Shown here piece after piece: positions 1,716-43,936 of a DNA stretch of 64,000 nucleotides. Source of the DNA: Ianthella basta (Eukaryota; Porifera; Demospongiae; Verongiida; Ianthellidae); the NCBI GenBank assembly GCA_964019415.1, contig OZ025877.1:5363742-5427741 (forward strand). Direction: 5' to 3'. Under the pieces are notes generated by a model. It was not told the DNA's origin. It made no database searches and worked only from the letters and a program-made list of their open reading frames with translations. The position numbers and the translations under genes are program-made. Every line of letters begins with the position of its first letter. The stretch's first letter is position 1.

Positions 1716-1880
1716 GCAATGAAGGTATATGAGCTTCAAGCGCTGTATTAACTTCAATAGGGTACAGAACGTTTCGATTCGTAGATCTTCATTACAGCTG
1801 ATGAAGATCTACGGATCAAAACGTTCTGTACCCTATTGAAGTTAATACTGGCTTGAAGCTCACAAACTTCCATTGCATCG
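1716..1880 (+). ncRNA. Hammerhead-ribozyme-like palindrome H1
   Basis: An inverted repeat has arms at 1716-1795 and 1800-1880. On the plus strand, TACAG (1793-1797) can pair with CTGTA (1826-1830) as helix I. Between them are CTGATGA (1798-1804), an extra A, the stem GATC-TACG-GATC (1806-1817), AAAA where GAAA is expected, and CGTT. This is the small hammerhead layout in which ACGU can form helix III only in a dimer. The G12 position is A, so self-cleavage is probably lost in this arm. The opposite arm keeps GAAACG but has CTGTAATGA in place of the core. Confidence 0.6.
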
Positions 1881-2341
1881 TGACCACACAGTAATGAACC
1901 TCTACAGTATCATACACACTCATGCTAACACCAACAATGTTGGCAATTGTCTAGTGCACAATTTGTAATGTAAACTACGCACCTGAGAACACACATCAAA
2001 CTCTAATGGTCACAATACGAGATTTCCACACAGAACATTAAACAGCTCATTAGAGCTGAAATCCCATAAGGGCTGATGATGACCACTGGCCTCAGTAGAG
2101 CAAACCAAGCACTGAAGCATTGGCTATAAAAACAACCCTCAAAACACACATCACATCTCTGCACTAAACACTTTCATTGCAACTAGTGGTAAATAAAGAC
2201 TACTAGACAACCTGAGGAAGACAAAATCTTGATAATACGTAAGTGAAATAGACACATTACAGCACCTCAGGGTGATCATATAAGGAAAGCTCAAATTTGT
2301 AATGAATGTGTCTTACAGAGCATGGCCACCGCCTCTATGTA
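1881..2341. other. Non-coding stretch
   Basis: No open frame with splice support and no repeat boundary was recognised between the H1 palindrome and the foldback element that starts at 2342. Confidence 0.5.
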
Positions 2342-3917
2342 TTAGTTATACCACGGCGCTGAGGTGTATATGGATTTTAGGCGCACGATGCCCGAGGGCG
2401 AGTGCGTCTAAAATCCATATACACCGAAGCGCCGTGGTATAAGTGATATATACCCCGCCTAGCGCGTCTAGGCTCTTATTCGAAAGGCGGGCTTCTTCCA
2501 GGACGGCAGCTCTGAAGAGCGGCTGTCACGTTTTGTTGAATTCGCAAGTGCTGTGAAGTTTTTGCCTTTTGTTAAACCACTGGAGCAACACTCTAAGAAG
2601 CCAGTGAAGCGATTGAGGCATCTGCGACGTTCTCGGCTTTTGAGGGTTCTTTGCGCTCACTGCTCGACTTTCTATTCACCGTGAAACAGTGCGTTCCCAC
2701 TGCTGCAGTAATTTTGAATGCCCTTGCGTACGAGTTTGCGCACGAGCAAGCTGTTTCTCGTTTGTACACTGTGCGGGTCGCGTACATGGTTTATCTAGCT
2801 CGGTTACGAAGCGCTTTACGTTGTTAGCTTGTGTGCATTGATTGCAGCGTGGTAGAGTGATGTATGAGGCTTTTCAATGCTTTGCGGACTCTCCCGAAGC
2901 AACGTAAAGTTGAAGCTGACTGCAAGTTGCTGCATTTGTGTGTGTGCTTTGGTGTGATTTGACACCTTCGTTGTTATCAATAACAATCCTTGTTATCTTT
3001 CACACCTTCCATATTTGGGCTGGGATATAACAGGATTTAAGCGCCCCTGTGCATATATATGCTTCTTAGCTCCTGTTATATCCCGGCTGGCTTGTTTACG
3101 CGATATATTTTCGCGCGGTTGCCATGGCAACGGGGTATATGTGTGCATATACTCCGTTGCCGGGGCAACTGCCGGGATATAACTGCAATAAGAAGCCGTT
3201 TTTGGGGTATAACTGCAATAAGAAGCTATATACTGCACAGGGGCGATTAAATCCTGATATCACTGCCCAAAAATGGAAGTTGTTATTGATAACAACGAAG
3301 GTGTCAAATCACACTAAAGCACATACGTACAAATGCAGCAACCTGCAGTCAGCTTCAACTTTGCGTGGCTTTGGGAGGTCCTGCAAAGCATTGAAAAGGA
3401 GAATGCTTTGGCGAAGGAGGAAAAGGCGGAAAAGGAGAATACAGCGCTCCATAGCCGAGCTAGATAAACCATGTAGGCGACCCGCACAGTGCACAAACGA
3501 GAAACAGCAGGCTCGCGCACTAATTCGTACGCAAGGGCACTCAAAATCACAGCAGCAGTGGGAATGCACTGTTTCAAGGAGAACAGAAAGTCGAGTAGCG
3601 AGCGCAAAGAACCCTCGAAGGCCGAGAACGTCGTAGAAGCCTCAATCACTTAACTGGCCCCTTAGAGTGTTGCTCCAGTGGCTTAACGTAAGGCAAAAAC
3701 TTCATAGCACTTGCGAATTCAACAAAACCTGGCAGCCGCTCTTCAGAACTGTCGTCCTGGAAGAAGCCCGCCTTTCGAATAAGAGCCTAGACGCGCTTAG
3801 GCGGAGTATATATCACTTATACCACGGCGCTTCGGTGTATATGGATTTTAGACGCACTCGCCCTCGGGTCTCGTGCGTCTAAAATCCATATACACCTCAG
3901 CGCCGTGGTATAACTAA
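2342..3917. mobile_element. 1.58-kb foldback element with a hairpin at each terminus
   Basis: The element is an almost complete inverted repeat with its centre near 3130, and arms of about 700 bp. Ends TTAGTTATACCACGGCGC and its complement abut TA dinucleotides at 2340-2341 and 3918-3919, suggesting TA target duplication (Tc1/mariner-like), by inference. Each terminus is itself a 97-bp palindrome (2346-2442 and 3817-3913) with stem TTATACCACGGCGC/GCGCCGTGGTATAA and a GCCCGAGGGC tip. There is no transposase. Reading frames inside, such as one near 3124-3636, are basic and low in complexity and mirror the frames on the other arm, so they are not called as genes. Confidence 0.85.
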
Positions 3918-3925
3918 TACTTATA

Positions 3926-4106
3926 CAGTGAAACCTGTCAAAGACAGCCACCTTGGACCGGATACAAATTGACCTTTATAGAGAGGTGGCAAATTAACAG
4001 AGGTAGACTGCAATGTTTTAGTGCCATTTAGGGCCAGGGAGGCTGGTTGCTTTTTGAGAAGTACATGGCTGCCCTACATAGCGACCATCTCAAACAGGTT
4101 TCACTG
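3926..4106. mobile_element. Pogo/Tigger-type MITE
   Basis: A 181-bp element with terminal inverted repeats CAGTGAAACCTGTC and its complement GACAGGTTTCACTG-like end, flanked by TA on both sides (3924-3925, 4107-4108). CAGT-initial termini with TA duplication are typical of pogo-group Tc1/mariner elements. It has no coding capacity and sits only 8 bp from the neighbouring foldback element. Confidence 0.8.
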
Positions 4107-4108
4107 TA

Positions 4109-5974
4109 TATACAGATGTACTTTAGTGCACAGGTACTGTAATGCAGTTGTAGCTGTGTGCTGGGTGCACTTGAGTGTGCACAAATGGTCTATGCATATA
4201 TGTGTGTGTGAGGAGGGACTAATATGAAAGGATATGTTTGAGTTGCACACTACACATGTACATACATACAGTACAGTATATATATGCATATACATACATA
4301 GTGTATTCAATTCACATGTGAATGTGAACTACACCTGGTACATTACTACGTAGCTCAGGAACACATACAGCTCAATGCAGTAATCCCAGCAGTGAACATG
4401 AAGAGGGCAGTTGCCAAAGGGGCATGGAGCTACCTATTTTGTGGGGAGAGCAAGGAGGCAGGCTCACAGCAGCAGACCTGTGCCTGCAGCACAGAGGCGG
4501 AAGAAGGAAGGACTGCCTTCTTTCAGGGTCACTAGCAGACAATGCTTTGTGGTTTGATGCCTTCAGCCATTTCTTGCACTCCCACTCTAAGACTTGGTCT
4601 GGTCCTCAAACAAAGTGTTGTTCAACATATTACGGAAATTCAACTTGAAACACTTCATTGTTGTGTGTACCATATTCCAGTGATTCCTACTGGTGCATAT
4701 GTTGTTTGAAATTGAACATGTATGAATACAACAACTTCATTTCAGCTCACTGAAAGTGCTAGATATATTGAAATAGAAATATAATTCTCACTGAACACAG
4801 TGGATGCATTGATGCAGTGTACAAATTAGGCCAAGTAGATTAACGAGGCAAAGTTAGCAATACACATGTTCAGTGTGTACGTACTTAATCAATGATACCA
4901 TTAGCATAACAAATTGAGTTATGTATAGTGTAAGGAGGAATACACACAGCAGTGGGTACGATATAGGTCACTTGTAAACATCACTCAAGTAGACAACAGT
5001 ACTACACCAAAGAGCACTTATATGGAGTTTTCCTCACACCTGAAGTGGCTACATTATGACACAGTTGCACCAATGAAGAGTGTAAGAATGTAGTGTGTGA
5101 AATAGCTACTATACCACACTCAAGTGCAAGACGTAAGTGATACTGCAAGTCCTTGGACGGTGGTGGGCATATCACTTGCCTCGCACTTGAGTGTGGTATG
5201 TGTAATTGATTCAAGATTCCTACTGCCGATTAACATTTGCACTCTGCACTTGGTCATGTGAGTAGAGTTGCCAATTGATGTTACCACACTTGCAACAATG
5301 CAATGTTCCAAATACGTACTATAGTCGGGTGCCTAGTGTAGTAGCCAATGGCTAAAGGCCTCAGTAAATCAGCAATCCAATCCATTACAGTACATACATG
5401 ATGGAGTGCAGAGCACATTGGACAATTAGGACAAGACACTTTGAATTGACTGGATACCTATATTATGCATCCCATGCCTTAGTGTGGGGTCCAGAACATA
5501 TTTCTGAGAGAATTTAAGGTCTGGACAGTTTCCTTATGAAGACATTGTGTGAGAGGGTGGAGGTAACACATACCTGTGCTGCTAACACAAGTGCAGTCAA
5601 ATGGAGAAACGTGAACTACTAGTGGCATCATCAAGCATTCCTGTGCTTACGTACCTCCAGCAGAAGCTTTGGTACAGCCTGCACAGCTCCACCGTCACTA
5701 CCACAACATAAGGCTAACCAGCACTACAAAATATCATTGTTGTATGCACATTGCAGGAATAAGCACATTATGCATCGTACACAACTTTTAAGCACATTTT
5801 GCAATCTGCATGATTGGCCATTCCCAAAGTCTGAATCTACACAAACCAATACAGCAACTGTACCAGGCACTTTCCCTCTTTCAATATTGTGCAATCAAAG
5901 GAAAGGGGCTTACGTGCCAGACTACCTGCCCTAAACAAAAGTTCCTGTAGGTAATAGAAATAGGCTTGGTACCT
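4109..5974. other. Non-coding intergenic stretch with a small hairpin
   Basis: No supported exon was found. The only structure is a perfect 17-bp inverted repeat ATACCACACTCAAGTGC at 5111-5127 and its complement at 5183-5199, separated by a 55-bp loop. It could be a tiny MITE remnant; its boundaries and target duplication are not clear. Confidence 0.5.
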
Positions 5975-6177
5975 CAGAAAGGGTTGGTTCTCCAATACCA
6001 GCTTCACAACAGGGTTGAAAACCTTGCCGACGTTTCGACCAGATGCTCTGGCCTTCTTCAGGGCGAAGATTGAAGAAGGCCAGAGCATCTGGCAAGGTTT
6101 TCAACCCTGTTGTGAAGCTGGTATTGGAGAACCAACCCTTTCTGATGCCTGAGCCAACTGAGAAGCAGCCTCACTTC
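5975..6177 (-). ncRNA. Hammerhead-like palindromic insertion H2 with 13-bp direct repeats
   Basis: A 203-bp palindromic unit lies between perfect 13-bp direct repeats AGGCTTGGTACCT (5962-5974 and 6178-6190). The left arm, read on the minus strand, has GCC (6064-6062), CTGAAGA (6061-6055), an extra A, stem GGCC/GGTC (6053-6050 and 6040-6037) around a 9-nt loop, GAAA (6036-6033), CGTC, then GGC (6028-6026) pairing back to GCC. The predicted cleavage site is after C6029. All core bases are present. The right arm is nearly identical but lacks exactly 12 nt covering GAAAC and the cleavage site. The sequence resembles small Penelope-associated hammerheads; catalysis is not shown. Confidence 0.68.
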
Positions 6178-6720
6178 AGGCTTGGTACCTGATTGTTTAT
6201 CATTGCTATAATGAACACAAGTAATTGGTCCCACACCGGGGGTTTCACCTCTAATTCAAACGTGGCACAGTGGTTTGCTAAAGACTGTTACAAATGACAA
6301 TCACTTCACAGATCACCTCTGAAGTTGGCCCAGTAGGGCATGTAACATATAGTTCCCTGCTCATGGCCTTCCCAAGTGAGGTCAAAGGCCAGAGGTGAGT
6401 TATGAGTCAAATAACATTGTAACAACCATTTTGCAAAATGCTGTATGCAACACATTTACCCCCATTCATTTACTCCACAGTGATATCTAACATTTACCGT
6501 AACAACAGGGGCAGGGGTGAGACATGTAATGACAGAGCAGAAACTAACCACCACGCCCAGATACTGGTTGCATGGGAAAGCTTTTCTAGTGCTAATCACA
6601 TGGCTAACTGATTGACAAAAACGGCATCTATTAATTATATTCAACCTCAATATGTCCTGTCAAATGTGCACTTGCCAACCATATTTATTCTGCTGCTATG
6701 TGATTTGTGTTGTATCTTTA
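6178..6720. other. Non-coding stretch
   Basis: No exon or repeat boundary was recognised here apart from the right-hand copy of the 13-bp direct repeat at 6178-6190. Confidence 0.4.
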
Positions 6721-6759
6721 GCAACTGAAAAAGGCCCACTCGAGGCCGAAACGTTTTGC
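6721..6759 (+). ncRNA. Degenerate hammerhead-like core H3
   Basis: GCAA (6721-6724) can pair with TTGC (6756-6759). Between them are CTGAAAA (6725-6731), an extra A, stem GGCC-7 nt-GGCC (6733-6747), GAAA (6748-6751) and CGTT. The layout is identical to the other copies, but the G8 position is A, so the motif is probably inactive. No palindromic partner arm or target duplication was seen. Confidence 0.55.
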
Positions 6760-7950
6760 CCCATTGAACAAAGTGGACCACATGGTTAAAACTCACAAAA
6801 CTTTCCCAACCAATAACACTGTACACATGGAATAATAAACAATCCAAAGTGTAAAATGCATACAGACAACACTGTAGACGATCCACGTCATGAATTGAAA
6901 CACCATATAAGCAGCCAAATCAGTCAAAACTTATCAGCATCTTCTCCGATACACCACTAGAAACGCCTACATTCCACAGGTTAGATGTGAAAGCTGTCAT
7001 TGTTACCAAACAATTATCTGATACCGTCTCTGTGACAATTGAATGGAGTGCATGAAAGGCAGGGAGTTCAAATAACATGCTTTTCTGTGGCCCACTCTTG
7101 CAAGGAGTGAACTGCCAGGCTAAGTTCAGAACAAACGAATCATTACAATAATCCTGTTCTACAGATGAATACAGGTATACATCTAGTGGCTAGCGTCCCA
7201 CATCTGATCGTGCACCAGGTGCTTCTACAAGAACACCAAGTGTAGAACCGACTGACATGCATGCACACACACACGCACGCACGCACACAGGTACACACAT
7301 GCACGCATGCATGCACACATGTGTGCACTACACATTGACAGTTTCCTAATCATGACTACATTGACCAATGAACATGTGCTATACAATGTTACCATGCATT
7401 TAATCAAGACAGCCAACAATACACCATGAGCAGCATGGACAGAACATGACATCAACCCCTTCACTACCTCATGGCACTTCCTACCTGAGGCAGTAGACTC
7501 CTGTCCATTCACAGCAACAGGCACTGTATAGGAAAGGAAATGGTAGAAGTGCCACCCACACATGAGGGATCAGCACTACATGCACAATAGTGAGCCAACA
7601 GACATTAACTTAATGATCATGAAAAGCAAGCATTACACTATATGACTGCAGAGGCATAGTCAAAGACTACATACTTAGCTAAAGGACAAACCATTGTGAA
7701 AGGTGTTTAGTGGAGATTCGCAAAACATGGTGCATTAATTGCTACAAAGCAAACAGAAGAGTAGTCTAGGCGTGGTGTTGGCGGTCTACGCCTTGTCTGG
7801 AGAGCTTTCGCTGGAACAACATGGAAACCTGTTAATAGTATTCAGTCCTCCTAGCAATTTACGCGCAAAAGGCCAGGAAATCGTTGCCAGCTCAGCTAAA
7901 GGAAAGTATGAGGCAAATGTTTTATGAGCTATCCGTGTAACCGTACACCA
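6760..7950. other. Non-coding stretch with CA-rich microsatellite
   Basis: Mixed CA/CACG/CATG simple repeat occupies about 7256-7325. Short open frames here lack splice support or family resemblance. A 62-codon open frame at 7739-7927 has somewhat higher GC than its surroundings but was not recognised. Confidence 0.45.
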
Positions 7951-8320: not shown

Positions 8321-11300
8321 ATGGCTGGTGCACAAGCAATGGTAAGTAGTTTACGATTCTTGTCTTTACTGATGTCTAGAAGGTGTTTTATGCATGATGT
8401 ATTCCTTCCTTACTTTCCATGCGATACACTCCTCTTGTCTATGTACTGCACTATTGTGTTGTGAGCGCGGGTAGACCTGTTGTTATCGACCACCAAGATC
8501 TCTTTCAGTGCGTGTGCATGACACTCGCTCCATTTGATGCGATGTCATTTGGGAATTTGCAGTGCATTCTAAGAGTGCCATGCCTTTCTTTTCAGAATCA
8601 CAGATGTATATTCCTTAACTACATTCAATGACACCATTTTTAAATTTGCTCTGCCTCATTATTGCCATGTTATCTAGACTAGCTTCTAGTCATCACTGCG
8701 AACAAATACACACACACATGTATGATACAGGTGAGGGTGCCTATTTCCCAATGGTGTATGTGTTAGTGAGGTACATATAAGGCAGGAGTCCTCTGTGCTT
8801 ATCTTCACTCCTTAGGACTCTGGAGGTATTTCAGGTGGTAGTTCCTCATCGTTAGATTTTGTTACATACTAATTGGGTTTGTCAGCCCTATACATTCATA
8901 CTGATTCGACCACTTAGCTGCAAGGGAGCCTGCAAGGAGCCTCTTTTTGCAGGTTCCAAAGCTTTTAGTGGATTCTTACAGGATACCTGTGTAACGTGGA
9001 CAGTGCCACATTTGTTCCCTTACAATAGCAGTGAGTGTCAAAGTGGACAAAGGCAGTATGCTTGAGTCTCTACCTTTTACCTGCAAAATGAACTGTCAGG
9101 TGTGCACTGCAGGCACACATGCGACCAGACACTGCATACCACTCCAGGAGATTATATGTCCAGCAGTGTTCTGATCCCGTGCTGCTGGCAAGCAACACTT
9201 GGGTTGTCACTGCCAGCCATAGTATGTTAATCTTTATGTTTTGACAAGTGTTCATATTCTCATGTAACCAGCGCCTTTCCCTATCTATTGTGTGCAATCT
9301 CACTTGTACTGAATGTCTAGTTTATGTACTAGCTAACTGTTTTACTATGCAACAGCACAGCAGTATAGTATCAATGATGGGAGCTCAGTAGAATTATGTT
9401 GCTCTCCGGTGTCTTCATTGTCTACTGTACTGATCATATACGCATGTTCTCTTTGTCATAGCAATTGAGGATCAGACACGGAGGAGAGCAGTTTCATCTG
9501 AGTGGTTTCTTCTCTCATTCAAGACTGAGCATTGTTATGAAGGCAATTGAAGAGAAAACAAGCATTTTACAATGCAACCAAAAGAGTGAGTTACAGTAAG
9601 GCATGTACTTCAGCTACTGCTGTTACCTTAGCTGACATGTTGTCCAACTAAGGCCAGTCTTGCAGTGTGTATGGCATTGCAATGTGCTTTTTGTAGAGTA
9701 TGTTGCCTAACTGTATCTATTATTAGAAACTGCATGACCTCATGGTTTTGTATGCATGCACAGCTCTGGACCATGTGCTGCCTCGTGTGTGCGTGATTGA
9801 ATAGACTTCTTCTTGTATGAGTACTCTGGTGTGTACTGTATGTGTGCCTCCCCATCATACTGACTGCAACAGTACACTGTGTGAGAGTGGAGTGCATTTA
9901 TGCACCTAATCAGCTGCCATACAAAGACAAGCACACTTTCAGTTTGGAAGTGCTTACTAGTGCAATTACATAATATATCCTGTGTACATATCTGTAACAA
10001 ACCTATTGCTAGCACTTATACTGATCCAGTAATTGATGTTCTGTTAACCAAGGCTTCACTGTAGAGGTGTTGTATTACCACTTGTTACATGAGGAAGCCA
10101 TACATCAAAGCAAGCTTCATGCCCTAGTGTGATAAATCAGCCAGCGCCCTCGCTGCCATGTTATACCTAGTACTTGTGCATAGGTGGTTTTAAATTCTAA
10201 GGTATTTATTTGTACATGTACTTTCTGAACTTGTGGAGTTAGAAAGTATACAGCTTGTGAAATCTGTAATTGATAAATTGTGACCAGGATTGTCACCAAT
10301 TGCAATCAACTGAGTAAATTGCTATTAGCCACCCTATACCTGTGTATACAGTAACCACCCTATGACCACCTGTGCATGCAATAACCCAGCCTATGACCAC
10401 CTGTGCATGCAATAACCCACCCTATGACACCTGTGCATGCAATAACCCACCCTATGACACCTGTGCATACAATAACCACCCTATGACACCTGTGCATACA
10501 ATAACCACCCTATGACACCTGTGCATACAGTAACCACCCTATGACACCTGTGCATACAATAACCACCCTATGACACCTGTGCATACAGTAACCACCCTAT
10601 GACCTCCTGTGCATGCAATGCTTAAAGTGGCTGCCAACCCATTCCCTGAAGTGAACTAATAACAGTCTAACAGAGCCCATAACATAACATCACATGCGAA
10701 CTCACTAATGTGGCTTAACTATGCACACAGCTGTAGCACCTCACTACTTTGTGTGCATGCAGTTATGTATTGATGAGATGGTTATGTGGTCATGCTTACA
10801 CGTAGATAAAACTGCATCAGCACTTCATGGCAGTTTGCCACATAATCCTACCACATCGCCATTTTGAAATATTTCTGGCCCACTTGTAGAAGACCCATAG
10901 TAGACTGGTTTCACTGTACATAGTTTGACTTTGTTGTTTGCTGATGGGTGCTGTAGTACAGTTTGAACGGATTTCCTCCTTTTTCAAAGTTTTGATAGGT
11001 TTCCCTCCTAAGGAGATATGCTCATATGGCCCATCTGTGACATTGGATGATGTAGGCATCAAGTCAAGAGAAACCCTAATCATCAAAGAACTTCCTCCAG
11101 AAGAGAGAAGGATACAGCAACACATGGCAGCAGGAGTGGATCTCCAAGAGCCTGCACCATCTGGACAGTTTGTGCGACAGTAAGAGCAATTCACTGGTGG
11201 AAGGACATCTTCATTTCATGTCCTATAATTGTATAATTCTCATGTGGCACTAGATGTGTATACTTCTACATACGTAGGTCTATTAGTGCATATGTTTAGT

Positions 11301-17312: not shown

Positions 17313-20300
17313 ATGGCAAGTGGCAAGGAGTACGTGAACCACCTAGCTCTGGAGCTTGATGTGGTGGAGGGGGAGGGGCGGAAGGTGTACTTGCCAGCAG
17401 ATAGCGGACTGGAAGAGTGGGGGACGTCCGGCTTCAAGGCTAGATTCAGAAACATCTTGACCGGCTTCGCTTGGGAAGAACTATACCCGGTGGAGAAAAA
17501 CGATGATCTTCTGCTTACTCTGGAGGAGGATGAGGAGGAGAAGGCGAGCCGGGAGGCGAAACAGGAAGCGTTGAGACAAATGTGGTGGGAGGCGGTACAA
17601 GAAACTGTCCGCGAAGATGCAGACCTCTTTGAAAGGGTAAGAGCATCAATGACACACCTAACTGTGCCTCTCTCCCCCTCCCTTCCTCTCTCCGTCCCTT
17701 CCTCCCTCCCTCCTCCACCCCCCCCCCCCCCCCCCCACCCCCCCCTCCCATCCCTCCCTCTTTCCATTCCATACAAAATCTGCTAAATTGAGTCTAAAAG
17801 GCATGCATGTGCTGCTAACTTGAGTTAGCCAAGAAGCAATGCTGATGTAGAAACCTTTGCAGTCTCTATTGTTCATGCATGTGTATTGGTGAAGTGAATG
17901 TGTATCTCCTTTCTTTTGTCATTTCAGGTTCAGAAGAAATGCAAGGAAGCACTGTCCACTGGTGTGGAGTGGAAGAAGATAGTGCAGGAAGTGCTGACAG
18001 ATGTGATGCTTGAGATGGAGGGTTTGGAGCCGAGAAAAGCTCTGGAGTTTATTTTTGAACAAGGATTCACCTACTTCCCAGTAAGTGAGGAAGCAGTTTT
18101 ATAACAATTTGTTTGGTAGGATAGTGAGTCAGTATGTAAGGCTGTGATAACTACTAGGGAAGGTAATAATATGTGCATTACAAGCTGTGCAAGCTATGCA
18201 TGTAGTACATAGCAATACTTGTTTGCATAAGCTACTAGGTTGCCTGAAGGAGTGAATGCCTGTGTTGCCTGCCTACCCAGGCGATGACATGTGATTTGCA
18301 TGTGCTCTAATATACATAGCAGAAGCTTGGTTACTTTATTAATGGGAACAAGATCAAGCAAGTGGTTGACAATGTTGGATATGTGGTACTTGGTTCCTGC
18401 CTAGAGTTATGTGGTCCAATATTTTTAGCACTAACAGGTATTTTGTAGCTTCTTACTATACTTTGAAATTTCAGATCATCGTCGACCCCTAGTGGCATTA
18501 TTGTGCCTACGATTCAGATCGAGAAAACCAACTGAAAAGATGAAGAGTTTTGATGTTTCCAGGTTTGGAGATGAGAAGTGTGCACAAGACTTTGACAAGA
18601 CTGTAGCTGCAAAGTACCACCAACTGCCTGAAGAACCATGCAAGAGAAAATCTGGAAGCAAAATGGGGAGAGCTATGTCAGCACTGACGTCGGCAACAGA
18701 AGAGCACCTCAGACCTATAATTAAGGGAATCCAATCAGACTTGCAATCAAGTGAAATAGCAGATGTGGTGGAGTGTAGACGAAAGGCATTCACTGAAGTG
18801 AACAGTAGACTGAGCAAGAAGCAGACTGGTGTAGCCCAGCATAACAGCAAAGTCAACCTAGCATACAAATCTGATACTGACAGGCTGTGGAGTGAGAGGG
18901 CACATGAGGTGGATAAGGCAAGTGCAGAGGGAAGTACGCAACAACAGTATGCCCTGATCAGACACCATACAGGGAAGAGGAAATGGAAAGAACACTACAG
19001 CACACTGTATGATCACCAACCTGAACCATTCATTTTGGAGGGCCCTACATTTGACACTCCACTTAAAGATCTGACAGAGAAGGAAGTGGACGACACTGGT
19101 ACCTAACTGAAGATGAATCGCGCTTGCAGATGTGATGACATACCAGCTGAGGTGCATAGATACTCAGCAATGGCTAGGCTCTGGCTCTTTCATATTATCA
19201 TGATTATTTGGAGATTATTTTGTACGCAGCTGACGAAGGCCTTCGGGCCGAAACGTTCTTTATTAGTTGTTGAATAATCTGCTACGTATTGCCCACAAAC
19301 TATTCGCCCACATCGAACAACGTAGCAATGAGCCTCTTCTTCTACGTTATTTGAAGACTCTGTATCTTGCCAATTGATTGGGGCATGTCCACCATCATCC
19401 CCATACTGAAACCACACAAGGACCCCTCAGGTCCAACAGGGTACAGGGGCATCAGTCTGTTGGTAACCGCATATAAGGTATATGCACGCTGTGTGTACGA
19501 GAGGCTGAAGGGATACCTGCTCGACATTGCAGGTCCAACCCAAGCTGGCTTTACACCCAGTAGAAGCACTGCTGACAACGTACATCTGTGCAGTCAAACA
19601 ACTCATTGATGAGCCACCAAGTTCAACCGGCCCATCTATCTGGTGGCTATAGATTTCACCACAGCCTTTGACTTTGTAAGCAGAGATGCCATCTGGAGAA
19701 TTCTGTTGAACCTTGAAACACCTGAATCACTAGTAAGACAGGCTAAGTGTATTTACAGTGCATGCCATGCAAAGGTGAGAACTCATTTTGGCACTACTGC
19801 TGAATTTGAGATGCGTGGGGGAGCAAGACAGGGTTGCTACTCTGTTCTTAGTAGCAATTGAATGGCTAGCACACACACTCAACTATCTGTTTAGTGGGAA
19901 TCTGTGTCATCTTGAATATGCTGATGACATGATACTAGCATCACATTACCTAGACACCCTACAAAAGGCCTTAGACCTGCTGGCAGAGAAGGGGTGGAGT
20001 CTGGGCTTGGTCATTCATCCTGGGAAAACAATGGCATGTGGTAGAGGAGACCCCACTCCATCAAGGTCCCTTCAATGCTCTGGTGTACATGTCAAATGGG
20101 TGAAGTGTATGGTGTACCTCGGAGCAGTCCTGACTCAGCTCAAGATGAGGTGAACAGATGAACTGCAGGTGCAGGGCACTCATTCCAACAGCTACAATGC
20201 ATTGTTTTCAATGATCCTGAGATTAGTGCAGCCACCAAACTTAGGGTGTTTCAAACCATGGTAATGCCTGTATTCCTGTATTGTATGCACCCAGTGCCCC

Positions 20301-27907: not shown

Positions 27908-28956
27908 TATATCTAGCCATGTTGTAGTTTCTAGGTATTCAGTGCTTACCATAGCATCAAGTAGTACTGGTTGTATGATTGTGTATTGACATTGTTTGAA
28001 TGGCTGCTGATCACTCTTCACAGTACTTGTGTTAGACTAGAATAAGTGCACTAGATGAGAACACCTGCACGATGTGTTCAGCAGTCCATCACTTGTCATC
28101 ACATCACCTATAGTATGTACATGAGTGATCCATGTACGTATTATTCACTGATGAAGGGACGTAGATAGATGCCAGCATGTTGTATAACAGTTATCCATTT
28201 GACCAATGTCAACAAAACCCATATCACTGATTTAATCACAGTTCTCACTACCTAAAGAGTAGACCCAGCTGAGGAGTAATGTCCATACATACAGTAGCTA
28301 TGGGTTAGTGTTCACTATTCTACAGATCAGACTGTGGTAGCACTCTACTGCAAGTAAGGAGGGGATAGCACAAGTTGTTTCACTTTATGTTTGTACACAT
28401 TTAGATATACCCGGTAGAATTTGACCTTTGTCATGATCATTGCATTAATTGAAGATATTCATTCTTATGATCACTGCCAGAAAGTACATATTGTGCATTG
28501 ACAAATCAATGGCTTTGGCTACCTTGTCATGTATGGCTGAGAGTGAAGGGAAGACTTACGAGCAATTCACACAACATAAAGTTAATGGTAAAAACATCAA
28601 GTACACTTTGACCTGAGGGTCTTCTTCAGCTGAACCTTCTATCATTTGAGTTAATTGCTCAAAAGTCTTTGCCTTTACATATGTCACAACAATGAGCCTC
28701 TGCAGTGTCATCCATAGCTGTGAGTACTTTTAATTTCATGAAGCAAGTAACATATGTACATATGTTTGCCTTCATTCTTGTATTGCACAGTACCCATACC
28801 CTTAGTTACGTACATTACTGTACATGCCTTTAAACATAATTATGTAACACACAGTACACATGGCCCACTACGCTTACTTCCAATGCTGTGTATGCACAGT
28901 ATGTTTGTTATGTAATGTGTGTAGCAAGTACGTATACACAACACAGCCACTCCCTT
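27908..28956. other. Intergenic region between the TRP gene and NCAPH (tail to tail)
   Basis: The two genes converge here. A diverged repeat related to 22048-22105 occupies about 28140-28210, and a hammerhead-like relic lies near 28603-28633. No other structure was recognised. Confidence 0.5.
28603..28633 (-). ncRNA. Degenerate hammerhead-like core H6
   Basis: On the minus strand CTGAAGA (28629-28623) is followed by an extra A, stem GACC-CTCA-GGTC (28621-28610) and AAAGTG in place of GAAACG. The G12 position and the ACGU block are lost. There is no palindromic partner and there are no clear direct repeats. Confidence 0.45.
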
Positions 28957-34900: not shown

Positions 34901-37900
34901 CCAACAGCAAATAGATGAGCTCTCCCTGGAAGATGGTTGTGTGATGTGGGGAAGCCGTATGTTGGAGCCAGAAGTTGGTCTTCAGCAGGTATTGCAGGAG
35001 CTTTACGTGGGCCGTCCAGGAATATCCAGAATGAAAGACAGTGCAAGAGGAGTTGTGTGGTGACCAGGGATCGACTCAAACATTGAGAACCAAGTTCGGA
35101 CATGTGTTGATTGTCAAGAGAATCAGAAGTCATCAGCAGCTGTGTCACTCCATCCATGGGAGAGGACAGCCCATCCCTGGGAATGTCTCCACATAGACTA
35201 TGCTGGTCCATTCTTGTGGAAAATGTTCTTCGTATTGTTGGATGCACATCCAAAATGGCTCGAGGTAGAGATAGTACCTACAGCTACATCCACCATAACC
35301 ATTGCCAAACTAAGGTGCATGTTAGCAACACATGGCCTTCTGCACCTTGTTATGTCAGACAACCGCTCAGTTTTCACCAGTGGTGAGTTCAAGGAGTGCC
35401 TGGAACGGAATGGAATACACCATGTACGTACGTAGGTTCGGCGCCCTACCACCCTGCATCAAATGGTTTGCAGAGTGGTACATTAAAACATTCAAGACCT
35501 CACTGAAGAAGTGTGGTGATGATGATGTACGTACAATGTCAGTTGTCTCAGTTTTCATTCCATTGGTGTACCCCCCCCCCCCCCCCTCATTCCACAACTG
35601 GAGTACCTCCTGTTAATTGTTAAAGAGACATCGGTTGCAGACTCATCTGGGTTTGATGCGTCCTAGTATGACCAGAGTTCGCGTCAGAAATCAGGTCACA
35701 ACAAGGCAAGCCATGTCAAGACAGTTCAGACTGGGTGACTCAGTGTTTGTTCGGAACTTTGCAGCTGACCCAACATGGGTACATAGCTGGATGTGTGCAA
35801 AGTGATTGCATCGTGACTGAAGTCGATACTACAATAACCAATACATGTTCACTTGCCAATGTCACTTTACACCAATGGATTATGTCACTTTCTTGCCTTT
35901 AGACACCTGTACACAATTTCCCATGTACGCTAAGTAGCTCAACCCACATATGTTCAACACATTGTTATGGGTGCTATGTCTAAAGGGGGAACAGTCAAGT
36001 TGTTGACCCTAGGGTGAAGCAGCTCAGCCACCACCACCTACATGTAGGCCCTAACAACAAAGTGTCCTGGTAGTATGAGGCAGTGGTGCTATGGAGCTAT
36101 CAATTTCCTCCAAATGTGTATGTTGTTCATATGCCATATAGACAACTTCTAAGTACACTGTAGGTTCAATAACATTATCATGTTTCCATTCCCAGCTCTC
36201 TTACATCCATGCTAACAAATATTAGAAGACAGGAAAGCAGTCAGCCATTACAACAGCTGTGGTTGCATACCACAGACAAAACGTTAGGATGACCATGTTG
36301 TACATATCAGTGTATACAATAGACCCTGGAGCTATGCCACTGCTATCTGTCATTACTTGGCATTCTAATATTCCGATTAATCCGACTGTTACAGTGACGC
36401 AGTTCAGTACTACAGTTGTAACATAATTGCATCTCATTACAACAGCTGCCCAATACAAACATATCAAAATCAAACTAAGCTCACATTCTCTGAGGAGAGC
36501 TTGATACACTGTTTGTAATGGTCTGCAATTTGGGCATTGGACAGCTGGGAGGCAGATGGGCACTGCCGTCTCCTACAGTACAGGAAATAGAGAGGCTCAA
36601 ACATATAGAAAAGCATTGGTGTAAGGTAATGCACCTATCAATTGTTGTCCTCACCTACCCCACCTCAGTATGCCCCAGGTAAGAGGTGGGAATTGTCACT
36701 TTGCTGCTGCTCTTTCCCCCACCCATTCACAGCTGTTTTGAGGTGGCAACTTAGTTTTAGTGGAAACTGGGAACCGGAACCAGACTGCCCAATGATAAGG
36801 AAGGGGCTAAGGCGTTTCCCCTTGATTGCAGGCAATATTGCCACAAATACTTAATAGAACAGTGCTATTGGTAGTGGTCAATGTGTCTTTCAGGTTAAAA
36901 GTGTTGTTTATGCCTTATATTGCGTACATACAATTTTGGCATACACTTGTTTTGGTTAACTGCTTGTAGCGCACCTCTTGAAGTTTTCCTGGCATAATGA
37001 CTAACATGTGAAGATAGCCCAGCCATCGTACAACACCATACTGGTGCAACTTTTCTGCTGCCTTTTTTATATCACCCGCTTTAAGAGCAAATAAACTATG
37101 TCATGCATTATATACGCCGCATATACCGTGGTCTGCGCAGTACAACTTTCTGTTGAGCTCAAATAATGCCACAGCAGTTCAGATTACCTATAGAATCATT
37201 CCAAACGAGCAGTAGCCAACATTACAAGGGCAACGCTGCAGTGAAGAACCCATTTAGCATATAGCAAGGAATCGCTGTATTATTTATGTATGTAATGGTA
37301 CAACTTCCCGTGAGCTCGGATAATACTGTAGCACTTTAGAATGTAAACTGCTGCTCCTTTGGGACAACTCCATAGGCATTCTGAACTGCTATGGCATTAT
37401 TAGAGCTCACTGGGAAGTTGTACTGCGCAGTCCAGGGCATATGCACAGTATAGCTTATTTGCTCTAAAAGCGGGTAGTAAGAAAAAGGCAGCAGAACAGT
37501 CAATCCGGTACAATGTTGTGCAATGGCTGGGCTATCTCCACATGTTAGTCATTATTCCAGCAAAAACTTCAAGAGGCACACAACAAGCAGTTGAACGTAA
37601 ATCAGTTTGTGCCCCTGATTTTACGAACGAAAGCCATTGAAACAATTCTAAAATCAAAATCACCTTACTTACTACCAAGCACACCGTTCTGTGACGTGTT
37701 ACTGGTAATGTGGACTACAACCAAGGAGAAATGGGCTGTATACATAGTAACCTCCATGTGAGGGAAATCTCGCTGCCGCGAGGTCGGTTTCCAAATCAAA
37801 ACTAAGTTGCCACATTTTACATTGTCAAAACAGCTATGCCTTGGGCGCAACTTTGGTGTGAATGCCTACCCCAATAGGTGGGAAGTACCATTCTAACAGT

Positions 37901-38405: not shown

Positions 38406-38481
38406 CAGCGATTTCTTTCGATTTCTTCCCGCCAAATATTGCCATAGCGATGAATGGGGTTTCCCCATGCTTTGTGGCAAA
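38406..38481. promoter_or_regulatory. Putative bidirectional promoter between NCAPH and R3HCC1L-like gene
   Basis: Only 76 bp separate the two divergent start codons (38405 minus, 38482 plus), so the two genes must share or overlap their promoters and leaders. No TATA box is evident. The intervening sequence lies in a CpG-containing block. Confidence 0.6.
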
Positions 38482-41400
38482 ATGGCCGAAGACCTCTCCT
38501 CCAAGCTTACGTCCCTGTCCCTTCGCGAAACAGAGTAAGACTTTATAGAAAAGCGTAAGTAGCATTATATTCGTTCATTCCTCTAGCAGAGCTGACGAAA
38601 TCGTTTAGATATTAAGGTAAAGTAGCTTGTGGAATGCCAAGCAAGTTGTGGTTTCCAAGACCGCACCGCCTTACGCCTGTATGCAGTAGAACTTTTCGTG
38701 CGCATTTAGCGCATGAGTCAATGTGCTGGAAGACTTAATGAGAAGCTGTTTCTTGTCGTACAGTTGGAGGGACGCCCTGTGCACGGAAACCCCATCTTGT
38801 TCGGAATCTCCTACTTTACCTGCTAGGGCCAGCACTGTATGGTTAGATTAGATAGCCAACTTCATAGACTGCCCACCATAATAATCTTGTCTGCTACACA
38901 AGGTATTATCAGTCCATGGGCCATTACTGTTTGGCAGCATTTTAGAATTATAATGTAGAAGTTCTTTGCTACTGATGTAGAGAATGCTTCATGGCAACTA
39001 ATGGATGTCTATGATTGTGTGACTGACTAATGGTACTTCTGTAAATCACAGTTCTTTGATATTATGGCCACCATTCATGGTAGGATGCAATCATGGTCTT
39101 AACAACTACAGACCAATCTTAGTGTTCCCTTTCTTGATAAGGATTCTTGAAGCACTTGTTCGAGATCAAATCAAGTTCTTGAAACAATCCAGTTTTCATC
39201 ATGAACACTCAAGAGATTGTAGTATGTCACAGGGAGAAGAAGACAATTACAATATTACAATAGTCAATTAATGGAGCCTACGAGGGTTGCCCTAATGGCA
39301 GCTAACTGTCAGTCCCTAAATCTGTTCACCCATGTGATGTCATATGATGTGACATTACTACATTCTCTCAGAATTGTATGCTATGATTGGAAATTTGCCA
39401 AAGACAAAGGTATGATTTTTGAACTGTACTGTAGTGGTAGAATTATAAATAAGGCTTTTGACTCGATCATCCACGATACTTATAAATACTAATAGTTACG
39501 TTGATGAATCACTAATACGAAATTCTTGAGCAAGACACAACTGGTTACTGTTATGGTTGTGTATGTGGCTAAGTGTACTCACCTTACCTACCTTTGAGCA
39601 TGATCAGTTATGTTGTTATTAGTGATATGTTTTTATCCAGATCACGTGTGCTCATCTTAGTCACGTTTGAGTCTTGAGATCTTGTACTGGTTGTGGATAG
39701 TCTGAGTTGTTAGCTGCTGTTGTTGGACTTGTTTTGGTTGAGTTGTAGTTGTCCAGTGTAGTGCTTGAATCGCTTGATCATTGAGTGTGGGTGACTTGTA
39801 TTGATATCGTCAAAGATATCACAGTATTAATGAATCAAATGCAGGATGTTTAAACCTGGAGGTCTTTGCATACAGTTTGCAGTTGACAAAGACCTCCAGG
39901 TCGAAACATCCTGCATTTGATTTATTATTACCAGTTGCGTCTTGATCAAGAATTTTGTATCAGTGTATCAATCATCCACTCTGATAAGTTGTAGGTATGG
40001 CTAGAGTGACTTTTGCGTTGGTTGAATAAACTTCATTGTCAGAAGTCTCAACTCAGAGTACATGACTGTCTGTATCCTGTCACAAGTTATGAAGAATAGA
40101 AGTTTTGGGAACATGCATCAAATTCTAGGAGTTAACTGATTAATAGATGGCCTGAATTGTAATTGCTGACGGTTGGAAGTTTGGGATACACCTGCCACAG
40201 CACTGGATTATGGGCATGTATGTGATATAAGACATGAAACCGCTTCTCTAATCAATGGGGTGAGGGCATGTTACAGACATCAGGCCTCTTGTGGGCTATC
40301 ACTCTGGTTGCAAAGCTTAAAAGGTACTTGGTTCTGTGTTGTATGAATTGTTTCTAGTGTTGGGTTAGGTAGCTAGCATAACATTGAGGACACACACTTG
40401 TAGATGCTACAGCCGATCTGTTGTACTACACCTAAATGTGTACATTCGTTTGCTCCAATATGAGGTATAGTTCTTGCCATGATAAATTGTTTCTATGTAC
40501 ACTGTAGCCAGTGTCTCAAGTAAGTCTCCTTGCCTCCTGATCTCTCCAGGGAACACCACTGTCCAACTAAAGATGAAGCATGTACGTGGGAAGATGCCTT
40601 TGATGAGAGTGGTAATGCTGTGGGTGAATCAAAATTGGTTTCAGATGGAGGAAAACCAAATTATAACTACTATTCAATGGACGCCCACGACTTAGCTTCC
40701 ACACATGAATGTAAACCAGACAAGCCTTCAGTGACAAGTATGTAGGTTCTGTAACTTGTAACTAGCAGCTATCTCTCCCTAAGCATGCTAAGTGATATAG
40801 CCTGTGTCCATGTGCAGATGTTGTATGCTCTTGCCATCAATAATTGAGTTATGTTTGCATCTTGTGCATATCATGTCATAATTTATTGTTGTGTTACCTA
40901 GTGTTACATACCCTGACCTCTATAGAGCTGTACAACTGGGTACTGGAAGCACATGATTTCAAGCCAAGCCTCAAAACAGCAGATATAGTAGCAGGCCTGC
41001 AAGGAATCAAGTGAGCCACTTGTATACATACGTAGTAGTTTTATGATTTCTTGTCTGAATTGCACAATGTGATGATGTGAGTACTGTATGCGATGTGCAA
41101 TGCACATCAAATGATGCACGAAGCACCTAACAACTTGCACATGCCACATGATATCCCTAATTGTCACTTCTCACACATCTCTCTTATCTTAAGTTCTTAA
41201 CTTCCCTCTTCTTGCCATAGTACTGTACTTGGCAGAGAAGGATCCACGTGAAAGGGGCAAAGTGATATATCAATATCATGTTGCACATGCATTTCATTAC
41301 TAGTGTATAAATTTCCTTTAAAACTTTCAATGGATTTAGGAATGGCCAGTAGGAGTCGCTGAACTGCTGGGTGTTATCCCGCTGATCACTTAGATGAACA

Positions 41401-42849
41401 AGTATTCAACAGCTTGCTGACCCTTGCTAGCCATACCAATGTCACTACCACTCTGTGGTCAACACAGGTTGTCTTCCTGTTCTTGACTGCAAACTTCCAT
41501 TTTGTACATAGATACAGTAATGTCCTTGTAGATACATACTGTAATTATGTGTATTTTCCATGAAATCACATCTCAGTGAAGTGCCCAATGCTACTCACTC
41601 TCACCAGATCCAGGACCTGTATATTGGGTAGTGACATGAAACACATATGTACAGTATGCATATACACTTGTATAGTTATGGCATCATCTGGTTGTACCTG
41701 GGAAGTGTTTGCATTCTTTGTGGCCATGGAACACACTGCCCTAAAGAACAAGTACGTAGCTATCAGACACAAATCCTTGCATATTGACTGTAGCTCTGAT
41801 GTGCTTCAAACCTCTTTTGGCAACTCACTTGGTTTACTTAGTCATGTCTGTCCCAGTAACAAAGAGGTGTAAGAAAACTACAGTACGTATGGACAACCAA
41901 CAGCAAGACAGAGCAAGTTGCTACATAACACAGGGGTAACTGCTCTGTGCCCATTTATGTACTTTCAGATTACGCACTCTGAATTCATATGACAATGGTT
42001 TGATTATTCACAGAGTGCCAAACCACACAGAACCAGTGTAATTTAAGCAGGATATGACCATTTATCAATTACTGTTATGGTATGGTGTTCACTACCATGT
42101 GTCCTATTTATCTTTACATGTACGTACACCTCTTCAGATCTAGCACTTATGGCATTAAATGGGTGGATGACACCCATGCTCTGATTATCTTTGCTACTGA
42201 AGAATTAGGTGAGAATTTACACACATGGGGAGTATGGGAACAGGCAGTAGCTATGTTAGCATCACAGTTCAGCTTTACAAATTCTTTCTGTCTTTTATTC
42301 CTACAGCTGAACAAGCCTTAACGGCGTCTTATGCAGTGTTTAGGTTAAGACACATTTGTGAAGGAACTGCCCAGTCACTGAAAGTGGCTGAAAGATGCGC
42401 TGGTAGGCTTTGCAACATGTAACTTCTTTTTAGTCGATCATTGGTACCAGCCTAGTGAATGGTCATTGCAGTAGTATTGGGATTACAGTATGTGTTGTAT
42501 TGCTAATCTGACTTGGACATTGATCATCTCCAGATTATTTGCGACCATGCCAAGAGAAGCCAAAGACAACTTCTAGTGTAGCACGAAGAATGATTTCTAG
42601 TGCATTGGGTGTGAAAATTGCAGTCAGCAAAGACAAATTAGAGGAGGAACGGAAAGCAATGCAAAAAGCTAAAGGTATTGTGCTGACACATTAGCTTTTG
42701 CAGAAGCCATGCAGTCTCCTTATTGCAAAGAATTTCTTGCAGCCTTATGCATGGCCGCAGCATAGAGCATGTCTTCATTGGTTGCTACCCTTGTAGAGGA
42801 GAAGAAGGCAGCATCCAAAAGAAAGGATTACTGGGCTGATGATCTCTGA
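38482..42849 (+). CDS. R3HCC1L: R3HCC1L-like protein (RRM-like fold with C-terminal coiled coil), complete
   Basis: Exons: 38482-38534, 40550-40737, 40926-41010, 42138-42208, 42307-42402, 42534-42674, 42797-42849; 687 nt, 228 residues, all in phase. The C-terminal two thirds match the conserved core of R3HCC1/R3HCC1L: 'LYNWVLEAHDFKPSLKTADI', 'YGIKWVDDTHALIIFATEEL' (the IKWVDDTHAL signature), 'SVARRMISSALGVK', then a charged helix 'KLEEERKAMQKAKEEKKAAS'. The N-terminal 75 residues are acidic and unstructured, far shorter than in vertebrate R3HCC1L, and no R3H domain is present. Biochemical function in animals is poorly defined; RNA binding is suggested by the fold only. Intron 1 contains a LINE fragment and a hammerhead-like palindrome. 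Confidence 0.86.
39080..39492 (+). pseudogene. LINE reverse-transcriptase fragment
   Basis: In intron 1 of the R3HCC1L-like gene, the frame near 39092 reads 'LNNYRPILVFPFLIRILEAL', the N-R-P-I block of LINE reverse transcriptases. A later frame has 'KAFDSIIHDT', resembling the 'KAFDxVxH' block. The spacer between them is shortened and frameshifted, and no catalytic YADD block or tail follows. It is from a different lineage than the LINE at 18474. Confidence 0.6.
39828..39930 (+). ncRNA. Hammerhead-like palindrome H7
   Basis: Arms of about 42 bp surround a short centre. On the plus strand TGCAG (39878-39882) pairs with CTGCA (39911-39915). Between them are TTGACAA (39883-39889, replacing CTGANGA), an extra A, stem GACC-TCCA-GGTC (39891-39902), GAAA (39903-39906), CAT and C39910. 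Helix I and stem II are perfect, but two core bases (C3, G8) are changed, so the motif is probably inactive. Confidence 0.55.
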
Positions 42850-43936
42850 TATTGTTTGAAACAGTATATGAGTTTATGTCTAGAGTGTTATTTATGCTTG
42901 CGAGGCATGCATCAACTTTTGAAATGGCATTAATTTCCATTATGTTATATGGCTCTTTCATTTTATGTACAGTTGATTACCACCACACTTCTCCCACTGC
43001 AGCTGAATGTCTTTTTAATTGACCCCTTTATTTCTTGTAGCCTGTCATCGAATCAGACTGCCCAAGAATTATATAATCTGGGAGGTGTGTGTATGAATCA
43101 AGATTATTGCATATATATTGACTGCAATCATGTACCCCTTGTCTTCAGTGTGGTATAGGCTCATTGCTGCGTAAGGGTACACACTTGTAGTGAAGAGTTA
43201 TTGAGTGTAATTGCAGCAACTGGATTTCACAATCAATCATGCAATCAATTTCCAGGATATTTCAGTTCGAAGACCTCAAGTGGTACAATAAACTGTTCAT
43301 TGTACCAGTTGAGAAAGGTCCTCATACCAAAACATCCTGGAAATTGTGAAACCCAGTCGCTGTGATTACGCTCAATATCTCTTCACTACTTGTCCTCAGA
43401 TCTAGACCTAGCTGAGCTAGACTACTCATAGACAGCTGAATAAGTCACCAGGTGCAGGTCAAGTGTTGCAGCCGTGCATACAGCTGCAGCCACCAGACCT
43501 ACCTACAAGGGATATACATTTTTGCATGTCCTGTATCAACAGTTAGTGTCATTCTTGTACTGGCACTCTGTATGGAACATGTAACAACATATAATTATCC
43601 CTACATAATATAGACAGCACTACCGTGCTGTCTGATCGATACAAACTATCATATGCATGATAGTACCATTAATTGATGACAGAGCCCTACAGATCTCTTG
43701 TTCTATAATAATTGGCTCCAGAGTTGTTCATGCAAATATGTGTTGAAAACTTGAAATACTACCATGCAATAAATGACAGAAATGCTCACACAGTTACAGT
43801 AAGTGAAAGATGGCATACACTACAGCCAGTTACACTATGTATGTCTTTGTTATGCTGTGATACATGCAAACTACGTATATACAATGAGAGTGTACCAAGA
43901 TTATAGCTAGTTCCATGCACAGTATATATTCAGGAA
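42850..43936. other. Intergenic region between R3HCC1L-like gene and BLTP1-like gene (convergent)
   Basis: It contains the H8 hammerhead-like palindrome at 43149-43388. No exon was recognised elsewhere in the interval. Confidence 0.5.
43149..43388 (+). ncRNA. Hammerhead-like palindromic insertion H8
   Basis: A palindrome centred near 43290, about 215 bp, lies between near-identical 11-bp direct repeats CTTGTCTTCAG (43138-43148) and CTTGTCCTCAG (43389-43399). In the right arm, CCAG pairs with CTGG around TTGAGAA, an extra A, a short GGT/ACC stem, AAAA and CATC, near 43304-43340. The layout is shared with the other copies but several core positions have changed. Confidence 0.5.

What the first reader, a model, noticed from the sequence alone, without database searches (positions are those of the whole stretch)
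1716..43388. Dispersed family of small hammerhead-ribozyme-like elements with dimeric inverted layout
Eight sites (H1-H8) share one order: helix I strand, CUGANGA or a variant, an extra A, a 4-bp stem with a 3-9 nt loop, GAAA, then CGU or AU plus U or C, then the complementary helix I strand. ACGU is self-complementary, so helix III can form only between two molecules. Small hammerheads that act as dimers have been described in Penelope-like retroelements. Here they occur in short units (about 130-240 bp) with no reverse transcriptase or GIY-YIG gene in view. Five form palindromes with two copies diverging from a centre. The extra A after CUGANGA differs from the textbook core.
Basis: partly seen in the sequence, partly recalled or inferred. 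Interest (0 to 1): 0.85.

Follow-up and report, generated by a model that had tools for sequence, protein, structure and literature searches.

The report
Penelope retrotransposon leader scars with ribozymes
The eight ribozyme-like sites are short insertions left by a known class of jumping gene (Penelope-like elements), mostly two copies of the start of its RNA pasted back to back; the ribozyme type is known, but the copies show unusually clearly how these elements insert.

Summary
A covariance model built only from non-window copies finds exactly eight sites in the window (E<0.01; next hit E=1.4). Helix I and stem II covary across families. One form of the motif has 1,969 exact matches in the genome (reversed-pattern control 3). 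It has the core of a minimal type I hammerhead with no cis helix III: the self-complementary ACGU stands in its place. Rfam does not detect it.

The interpretation needs one correction. The units are not a self-standing family. They are insertions of the 5' leader of Penelope-like elements (PLEs), whose RT/GIY-YIG genes lie elsewhere in the genome. Arms typically run from the predicted transcription start, through the ribozyme, to one of two outer ends that match PLE reverse-transcription start sites. In 22 of 25 head-to-head pairs one end is short and one long (+~33 nt); 18 of 25 show 11-15 bp target duplications. Centre junctions vary. This fits priming on both strands of a staggered cut (inferred). 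Of 71 arms, 33 begin at the predicted start and 3 at the predicted ribozyme cut. Ribozyme, tail and inverted layout are published PLE features. Cleavage was not tested.

The parts
1718..1914 (.). H1: head-to-head PLE leader pair; right arm carries the long tail
   Evidence: near-duplicate target site 1707-1717 CACATTCATGC / 1915-1925 CACACTCATGC (a second left match at 1687-1697 makes the left end less certain); HHR hits 1790-1833(+) 43.5 bits and 1760-1805(-) 27.3 bits; homologous to PLE family of L019/L020
5975..6177 (.). H2: head-to-head PLE leader pair (family A); tails 43 (left) and 74 (right)
   Evidence: target duplication 13 bp AGGCTTGGTACCT; HHR 6021-6069(-); arms match residues 2-33 and 5-40 of the L014 PLE frame at 97% and 83% identity
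6717..6763 (+). H3: HHR of a single leader arm, family of L030; homology 6710-6795
   Evidence: 41.5 bits; blastn 6710-6795; target duplication uncertain (10 nt with 1 mismatch)
19215..19346 (+). H4: single-armed PLE leader insertion inside a degenerate LINE reverse transcriptase
   Evidence: near-duplicate target site 19204-19214 TTATTTGGAGA / 19347-19357 TTATTTGAAGA; HHR 19222-19265; homologous to L028
26162..26385 (.). H5: old head-to-head pair of family A; left arm has the long tail
   Evidence: TGTAAGGTATTGAA / TGTAAGGTATTAAA at 26148-26161 and 26386-26399; HHR 26286-26334(+) E=5e-4; blastn to family A
28545..28716 (.). H8: probable leader pair with a truncated right arm; limits tentative
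   Evidence: HHR 28594-28637(-) E=1.7e-4; weak 9-nt duplicate with 1 mismatch
39475..39967 (.). H6: head-to-head pair, left arm split by about 280 bp; left arm has the long tail
   Evidence: TCGATCATCCAC / TCAATCATCCAC at 39463-39474 and 39968-39979; inverted arms 39824-39868/39887-39931 and 39505-39545/39930-39970; HHR 39875-39918(+)
43149..43388 (.). H7: decayed head-to-head pair; left arm has the long tail
   Evidence: CTTGTCTTCAG / CTTGTCCTCAG at 43138-43148 and 43389-43399; HHR 43301-43344(+) E=0.0066

Best explanation
The eight sites are insertions of the 5' leader of endonuclease-containing Penelope-like retrotransposons. The leader RNA starts at the pLTR promoter, carries a minimal hammerhead that lacks a cis helix III, and includes the first ~100 nt towards and into the ORF, where PLE reverse transcription starts internally. 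The PLE enzyme makes a staggered cut of about 11-15 bp. Both DNA ends then prime cDNA synthesis, one from each of two start sites about 33 nt apart on leader RNA of the same source. The cDNAs run to the RNA 5' end or stop short. They are then joined head to head by microhomology or with filler, giving a palindrome with one short and one long tail inside a target duplication. A transcript that carries only its own first leader offers the start site just downstream of its 5' end, so the product is a leader scar without RT or GIY-YIG; a tandem transcript can give a full copy. Shown here: motif, covariation, coding link, fixed outer ends, 5' ends at the predicted TSS, target duplications, tail asymmetry, varied centres. 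Inferred: dual priming, TSS identity, the leader-only argument. The ribozyme probably can cut as an RNA dimer or with protein help (literature), but few insertions look as if a cleaved RNA had been the template.
For: PLE coding: the L013 ORF has RVT_1 (E 4.6e-7, above cutoff) with YVDD at 160 and GEIYIG at 369; L019 has GIY-YIG (E 2.7e-5, above cutoff). In L014 the motif lies at the start of a 498-aa open frame. Copy number: motif 1,969 exact (control 3); family A tail 2,164 at <=2 mismatches (control 0). Layout: among the 100 listed tail places (first, 0-mismatch ones of 2,164), 24 diverging neighbours lie within 300 bp against 1 converging and 2 same-strand; 3 more diverging pairs lie 1.7-2.3 kb apart (a duplicated stretch counts twice). 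Outer ends cluster at 39-48 and 70-79 nt past the tail anchor in 69 of 71 arms. Tail rule: 22 of 25 family A pairs have one of each (one short end, L003, aligns only to 23). Target duplications: >=10 bp in 19 of 25 pairs; 400 shuffled flank pairs gave mean 4.3, max 8. 5' ends: 33 of 71 at 51-56 and 3 of 71 at the predicted cut; in the 69 arms sampled by tail alone, 32 and 2. The A at 54 lies 30 nt after the first T of TATAAATA. Both arms share the source variant in 26 of 27 listed pairs. Literature: PAc cuts and extends both strands, starts internally, and its tail lies between two RT start sites (PMC11167929).
Against: Three of 25 pairs (L059 twice, L069) break the tail rule; both loci hold more than two arms and look rearranged. 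[quoted passage not shown] Only family A gave many copies, all from the first 5.4 Mb of one contig plus the window; the other families rest on a few loci read by eye, and one search had no shuffle control. The TSS is predicted from a TATA box and the junction peak, not measured. Sharing of source variants between arms also fits self-copying of one molecule. A centre join at GAAGA recurs in L007, L052 and L071 and the same join is seen in L008, so a few palindromes could share history, though recurrent microhomology is simpler.
Confidence: 0.82

Rival explanations
1. Self-priming: one cDNA or antisense transcript folds back at its end and copies itself, giving the palindrome (proposed for Adineta vaga PLEs).
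For: Proposed in PMC3846280 (passages); arms share the source variant in 26 of 27 pairs; palindromic centres.
Against: Self-copying predicts equal outer ends and equal arms. Observed are ends that differ by ~33 nt in 22 of 25 pairs, arms truncated at different 5' points, and filler or extra leader pieces at centres.
Confidence: 0.12
2. The palindromes are a self-standing non-autonomous family (MITE- or retrozyme-like) that multiplies as a unit, as the finding suggests.
For: Thousands of copies, similar size, symmetrical layout; one centre join recurs in a few loci.
Against: Centres range from a 17-nt overlap to 68 nt of filler among 25 pairs; outer ends are unequal on the two sides; the same two ends bound long PLE copies with coding sequence (L016/L017, L075, L019); layout inverted, not tandem as in retrozymes.
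Confidence: 0.06
3. The motif is not a ribozyme but a conserved hairpin, for example the protein-binding site for internal RT initiation, or conserved only because it encodes the ORF start.
For: In families with N7 = C or U a cis fold pairs GAYG with CGUC; PAc HHR mutants still insert (PMC11167929); few template ends at the cut site.
Against: All four letters occur at N7 (3 A, 8 T, 2 G, 4 C of 17), and H17 is C, T or A but never G (9, 7, 1 of 17); the frame through the motif differs or is closed between the ten copies examined; helix I covaries.
Confidence: 0.1

Closest known systems
Penelope-like elements with minimal type I hammerhead (Cervera & de la Pena 2014; Lunse, Weinberg & Breaker 2017; neither held; known from citations and recall)
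   Same: Minimal type I HHR without helix III, in the pLTR of PLEs; thousands dispersed in non-coding DNA of animal genomes (PMC7761336 passages)
   Different: The dispersed copies are here explained as leader-only insertions with defined ends; the extra A after CUGANGA could not be compared, as those papers are not held
PAc, Poseidon of Anolis carolinensis (PMC11167929, main-text section read in full)
   Same: Both DNA strands cut and extended, internal RT start, tail between two start sites, HHR at ORF start not needed for insertion in vitro
   Different: In vitro no strand difference of RT start was seen; here pairs nearly always have one short and one long end
Penelope families of Adineta vaga (PMC3846280, passages)
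   Same: Head-to-head inverted pLTRs, 31-bp tail on one of them, short target duplications, palindromic junctions, TATA box in the pLTR
   Different: The families described there are of low copy number; here short pairs (<=300 bp) outnumber long ones 24 to 3 among the listed places; self-priming was favoured there
Animal retrozymes (PMC7229834, passages)
   Same: Short non-coding units with type I HHR; PLE machinery is named as a candidate for moving them (PMC7761336)
   Different: Retrozymes are tandem repeats that give circular RNA, mostly with canonical HHRs; these are inverted pairs with a minimal HHR

Membership tests
Hammerhead ribozyme, minimal type I (PLE kind) | Core C3UGANGA9, G12AA, U16.1 H17 with variable N7 and H17 not G | tested here: met
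   17-row alignment; TGANGAAG and GAAAC were fixed by the search pattern in 9 rows, not in the other 8; C3 is T in 3 rows, G8 is A in 3, G12 is A in 2; N7 shows all four letters; H17 C 9, T 7, A 1
Hammerhead ribozyme, minimal type I (PLE kind) | Compensatory changes in helix I and stem II | tested here: met
   8 of 9 pairs with double changes, 88% of cells paired, covariation 0.68 against 0.23 shuffled and <=0.16 slid; rows had been filtered for partial pairing; the two stem II pairs left free by the pattern form in 26 and 28 of 31 distinct strings
Hammerhead ribozyme, minimal type I (PLE kind) | Helix III absent in cis, self-complementary in trans | tested here: met
   sequence only: ACGT follows GAA in 43 of 53 distinct instances, family A being the largest part; pairing in trans not tested
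Hammerhead ribozyme | Self-cleavage at GUH | not testable with these tools
   needs in vitro transcription
Rfam hammerhead models | Score above gathering threshold | tested here: not met
   no hammerhead hit in the window or in five loci, also at relaxed E-value; Hammerhead_II not found in the genome, but its control also rang nowhere
Penelope-like element | ORF with RT followed by GIY-YIG endonuclease, HHR in the pLTR at ORF start | tested here: met
   elsewhere in the genome: RVT_1 in L013, GIY-YIG in L019, GEIYIG motif in L013 (Pfam did not report GIY-YIG for L013), motif at the start of the open frame in L014; in the window only about the first 40 aa, in H2
Penelope-like element | Inverted head-to-head pLTRs, tail of 30-40 bp, short target duplication | tested here: met
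Penelope-like element | RT groups with telomerase/PLE RTs in a tree | not tested
   no reference set used
Animal retrozyme | Tandem direct repeats with HHR | tested here: not met
   24 diverging against 2 same-strand neighbours within 300 bp among 100 listed places
MITE / DNA transposon | Equal terminal inverted repeats moved as a unit | tested here: not met
   ends unequal by ~33 nt in 22 of 25 pairs, centres differ

The most novel reading that the evidence does not exclude
PLE integration is a coordinated two-ended reaction. A symmetrical enzyme-RNA complex cuts both strands and starts one cDNA at the proximal and the other at the distal start site on leader RNA of the same source, so every complete insertion has one short and one long tail. 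Copying the first leader of a transcript yields leader-only head-to-head scars, which would account for the thousands of 'dispersed minimal hammerheads' reported in animal genomes. The ribozyme acts after, not before, template choice.
Probability: 0.5. Interest if true: 0.6.

Novelty: new member of a known kind. Interest (0 to 1): 0.42.

Why it matters
How PLEs make their inverted pLTRs and what their hammerhead does are open in the papers seen: self-priming was proposed in 2013 (PMC3846280), internal initiation on both strands was shown in vitro in 2024 (PMC11167929), and the ribozyme's role was called a mystery in 2020 (PMC7761336). This genome holds over two thousand leader tails, so its insertions work as a natural record of the reaction: start sites, cut stagger, RNA 5' end, and whether a cleaved RNA was used. 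The unequal-ends rule and the scarcity of cleavage-site ends can be checked in any PLE-rich genome.

Tried and rejected
Rfam at gathering and relaxed thresholds found no hammerhead; I read the MIR7993, mir-297 and similar weak hits as palindromes and simple repeats. The family search with Hammerhead_II returned nothing, but its control genomes also gave nothing, so it says nothing. PDB search with the L013 PLE ORF found no relative at E<=0.1. A test of excess 5' ends at the predicted ribozyme cut gave 3 of 71, 2 of 69 in the tail-sampled arms; the 27 ends between 0 and 50 (cut-site arms included) would give about 1.6 in 3 nt by chance, and one of the three (window H2) can also be a microhomology deletion, so no excess is claimed. 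The idea that the short-tail arm is always the complete one was dropped: by my reading it holds in 9 of 10 discordant pairs but fails in three further loci with tiny short-tail arms (L050, L061, L064).

Literature searches for prior reports of leader-only PLE palindromes or the paired-tail rule; in the listings and the passages read, nothing beyond the papers cited was seen, in a library without most subscription papers.

One number in my notebook is wrong and is mended here: the notes say 20 of 25 target duplications of 10 bp or more; one search shows 19.
Full report
WHAT WAS CHECKED. The window is part of contig C10 of an unnamed 209-Mb genome in 96 contigs; I treat it as an animal, which no call shows. 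The finding lists eight hammerhead-like sites. Rfam reports none. A strict rule-based scan finds two and none in 12 Markov-simulated windows. A covariance model made only of 12 copies outside the window finds nine hits at E<0.01 on exactly eight sites, and then nothing better than E=1.4. A looser rule-based scan separates only five of them from simulated windows.

THE MOTIF. A pattern of the motif has 976 + 993 exact matches in the genome against 3 for the reversed pattern. Across 17 distinct copies N7 takes all four letters and H17 is C, T or A, never G. Departures from the core exist: C3 is T in three rows, G8 is A in three, G12 is A in two, mostly in decayed window copies. Helix I (5 pairs) and stem II (4 pairs) show double changes in 8 of 9 pairs, with 88% of cells paired; sliding the partners by 1-3 columns drops this to 18-46%. 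The result is the same without window rows, except that the count of pair types is then not above the shuffles (157 of 500 reach it). These rows had been kept only if most pairs formed and nine came from a pattern that fixes the end pairs of stem II, so one search is the fairer count: the two free stem II pairs form in 26 and 28 of 31 distinct strings. The four letters after GAA are ACGT in 43 of 53 instances. This is self-complementary and leaves no loop for a cis helix III, as the finding says. A competing cis fold that pairs GAYG with CGUC is predicted for some families. The reading frame through the motif is open for 494 codons in family A (L014) but is another frame, or closed, in the other nine copies examined, so protein coding alone does not explain the conservation.

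WHAT IT BELONGS TO. Loci around the motif contain Penelope-like elements. The L013 ORF (481 aa) has a reverse transcriptase match (E 4.6e-7) with YVDD at 160 and GEIYIG at 369; L019 has a GIY-YIG match (E 2.7e-5). Five other PLE or window pieces in the same two Pfam calls gave no RT or GIY-YIG match over the cutoff, among them L014, L017, L011 and L029. In L014 the motif is at the start of a 498-aa frame. Of the 80 loci, 73 hold at least a piece of PLE coding sequence, for most only its first codons (many of L001-L060 overlap, so these are not independent). In the window only H2 keeps such a piece. This is the arrangement published for PAc, whose ORF begins at stem II of its hammerhead (PMC11167929).

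THE SHORT UNITS. The family A tail occurs 2,164 times at up to two mismatches, with none for the reversed pattern. Among the 100 listed places, 24 neighbouring pairs diverge within 300 bp, against one converging and two same-strand pairs; three further diverging pairs lie 1.7-2.3 kb apart and hold coding sequence. In 71 separate arms the outer ends fall in two clusters, 39-48 and 70-79 nt past the anchor, in 69 of 71. Of 25 pairs with both ends readable, 22 have one end of each kind; the three exceptions lie in two complex loci. In the same 25 pairs the longest exact direct repeat at the flanks is 10 bp or more in 19, typically 12-13, while 400 shuffled flank pairs gave a mean of 4.3 and a maximum of 8. 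By eye the five palindromes of the window and L012, L019 and L028 show the same inequality; these eight were not scored by script, except H2, which is among the 25. Six of the eight window sites have 11-14 nt near-duplicates at their ends, five of the six with one mismatch (without a shuffle control); H3 and H8 have only weak ones.

5' ENDS AND CENTRES. Of the 71 arms, 33 begin at 51-56 nt before the anchor (20 exactly at 54), 9 at 40-45, 3 at the predicted ribozyme cut (11-13), 15 elsewhere below 57, and 11 further upstream. Because 30 loci had been chosen by an intact motif, I recounted on the 50 loci chosen by tail alone: 69 arms, of which 32 at 51-56 and 2 at the cut; the two arms left out are those of H2. 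Position 54 is an A that lies 30 nt after the first T of TATAAATA in the pLTR, which I read as the transcription start. In L029, of another family, TATAAAAG stands at the same spacing before CAGTTTTG (sequence), without junction data. Centres differ: overlaps of 2-17 nt in 8 of 25 pairs, none in 4, filler of 2-68 nt in 13, some of it more leader sequence. Arms of a pair share the A/G variant of the tail in 26 of 27 pairs (shuffled mean 19.3; pairs of a duplicated stretch count twice), so both seem to come from the same source.

HOW IT LIKELY WORKS. Published PLE work supplies the steps: cutting and extension of both strands, internal start of reverse transcription, a tail between two start sites (PMC11167929). 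Put together with the ends seen here, each insertion is best explained by two cDNAs, one primed at each side of a staggered cut, one from each start site, running to the RNA 5' end or stopping short, then joined. Because the start site lies just downstream of the promoter, copying the first leader of a transcript gives only a leader. Dual priming and the leader-only argument are inference. Self-priming, favoured in PMC3846280 (passages), predicts equal ends. A self-multiplying palindrome predicts shared centres. The ribozyme's task stays open: PAc HHR mutants insert normally in vitro and no RNA reads began or ended at its cut site; here too few insertions end at the cut.

VERDICT. The hammerhead and PLE link are right. 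The 'family of small elements' is better described as scars of PLE leader insertion. Each component is known; the data set gives a clear, testable picture of PLE integration.

Noticed in passing
window 18435-20150: Degenerate LINE-type reverse transcriptase in several frames (RVT_1 E 2.3e-5, below Pfam's cutoff; YADD-like stretch), with the H4 leader inserted in it.
   Followed up: partly
window 2336-3923: Large nested inverted repeat (arms 358 nt 90%, 126 nt 96%, further pieces) around a 170-aa frame with no Pfam match; looks like a separate inverted-repeat element.
   Followed up: no
window 564-986 and 36958-37592: Two further inverted-repeat regions (105 nt 89%; 113-125 nt 79-81%); the ribozyme model has no hit at E<=10 in either.
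   Followed up: no
window 10338-10619: 29-bp tandem repeat, 9.5 copies, 93% matches.
   Followed up: no
window 44298-49939, minus strand: Three coding pieces matching the C-terminal region of BLTP1-like lipid-transfer proteins.
   Followed up: no
L001: A family A leader pair is flanked on both sides by diverging hammerheads of another family (1392-1440 minus and from about 1881 plus): apparently a leader insertion nested in an older one.
   Followed up: no
G000 C1 near 4.389-4.417 Mb and 5.369-5.397 Mb: Three groups of family A places repeat about 979.6 kb apart: a segmental or assembly duplication (L069 and L079 share flanks).
   Followed up: no
family A pairs: Where only one arm reaches the predicted RNA 5' end, it is mostly the short-tail arm (9 of 10 by my reading), but L050, L061 and L064 go the other way.
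   Followed up: partly
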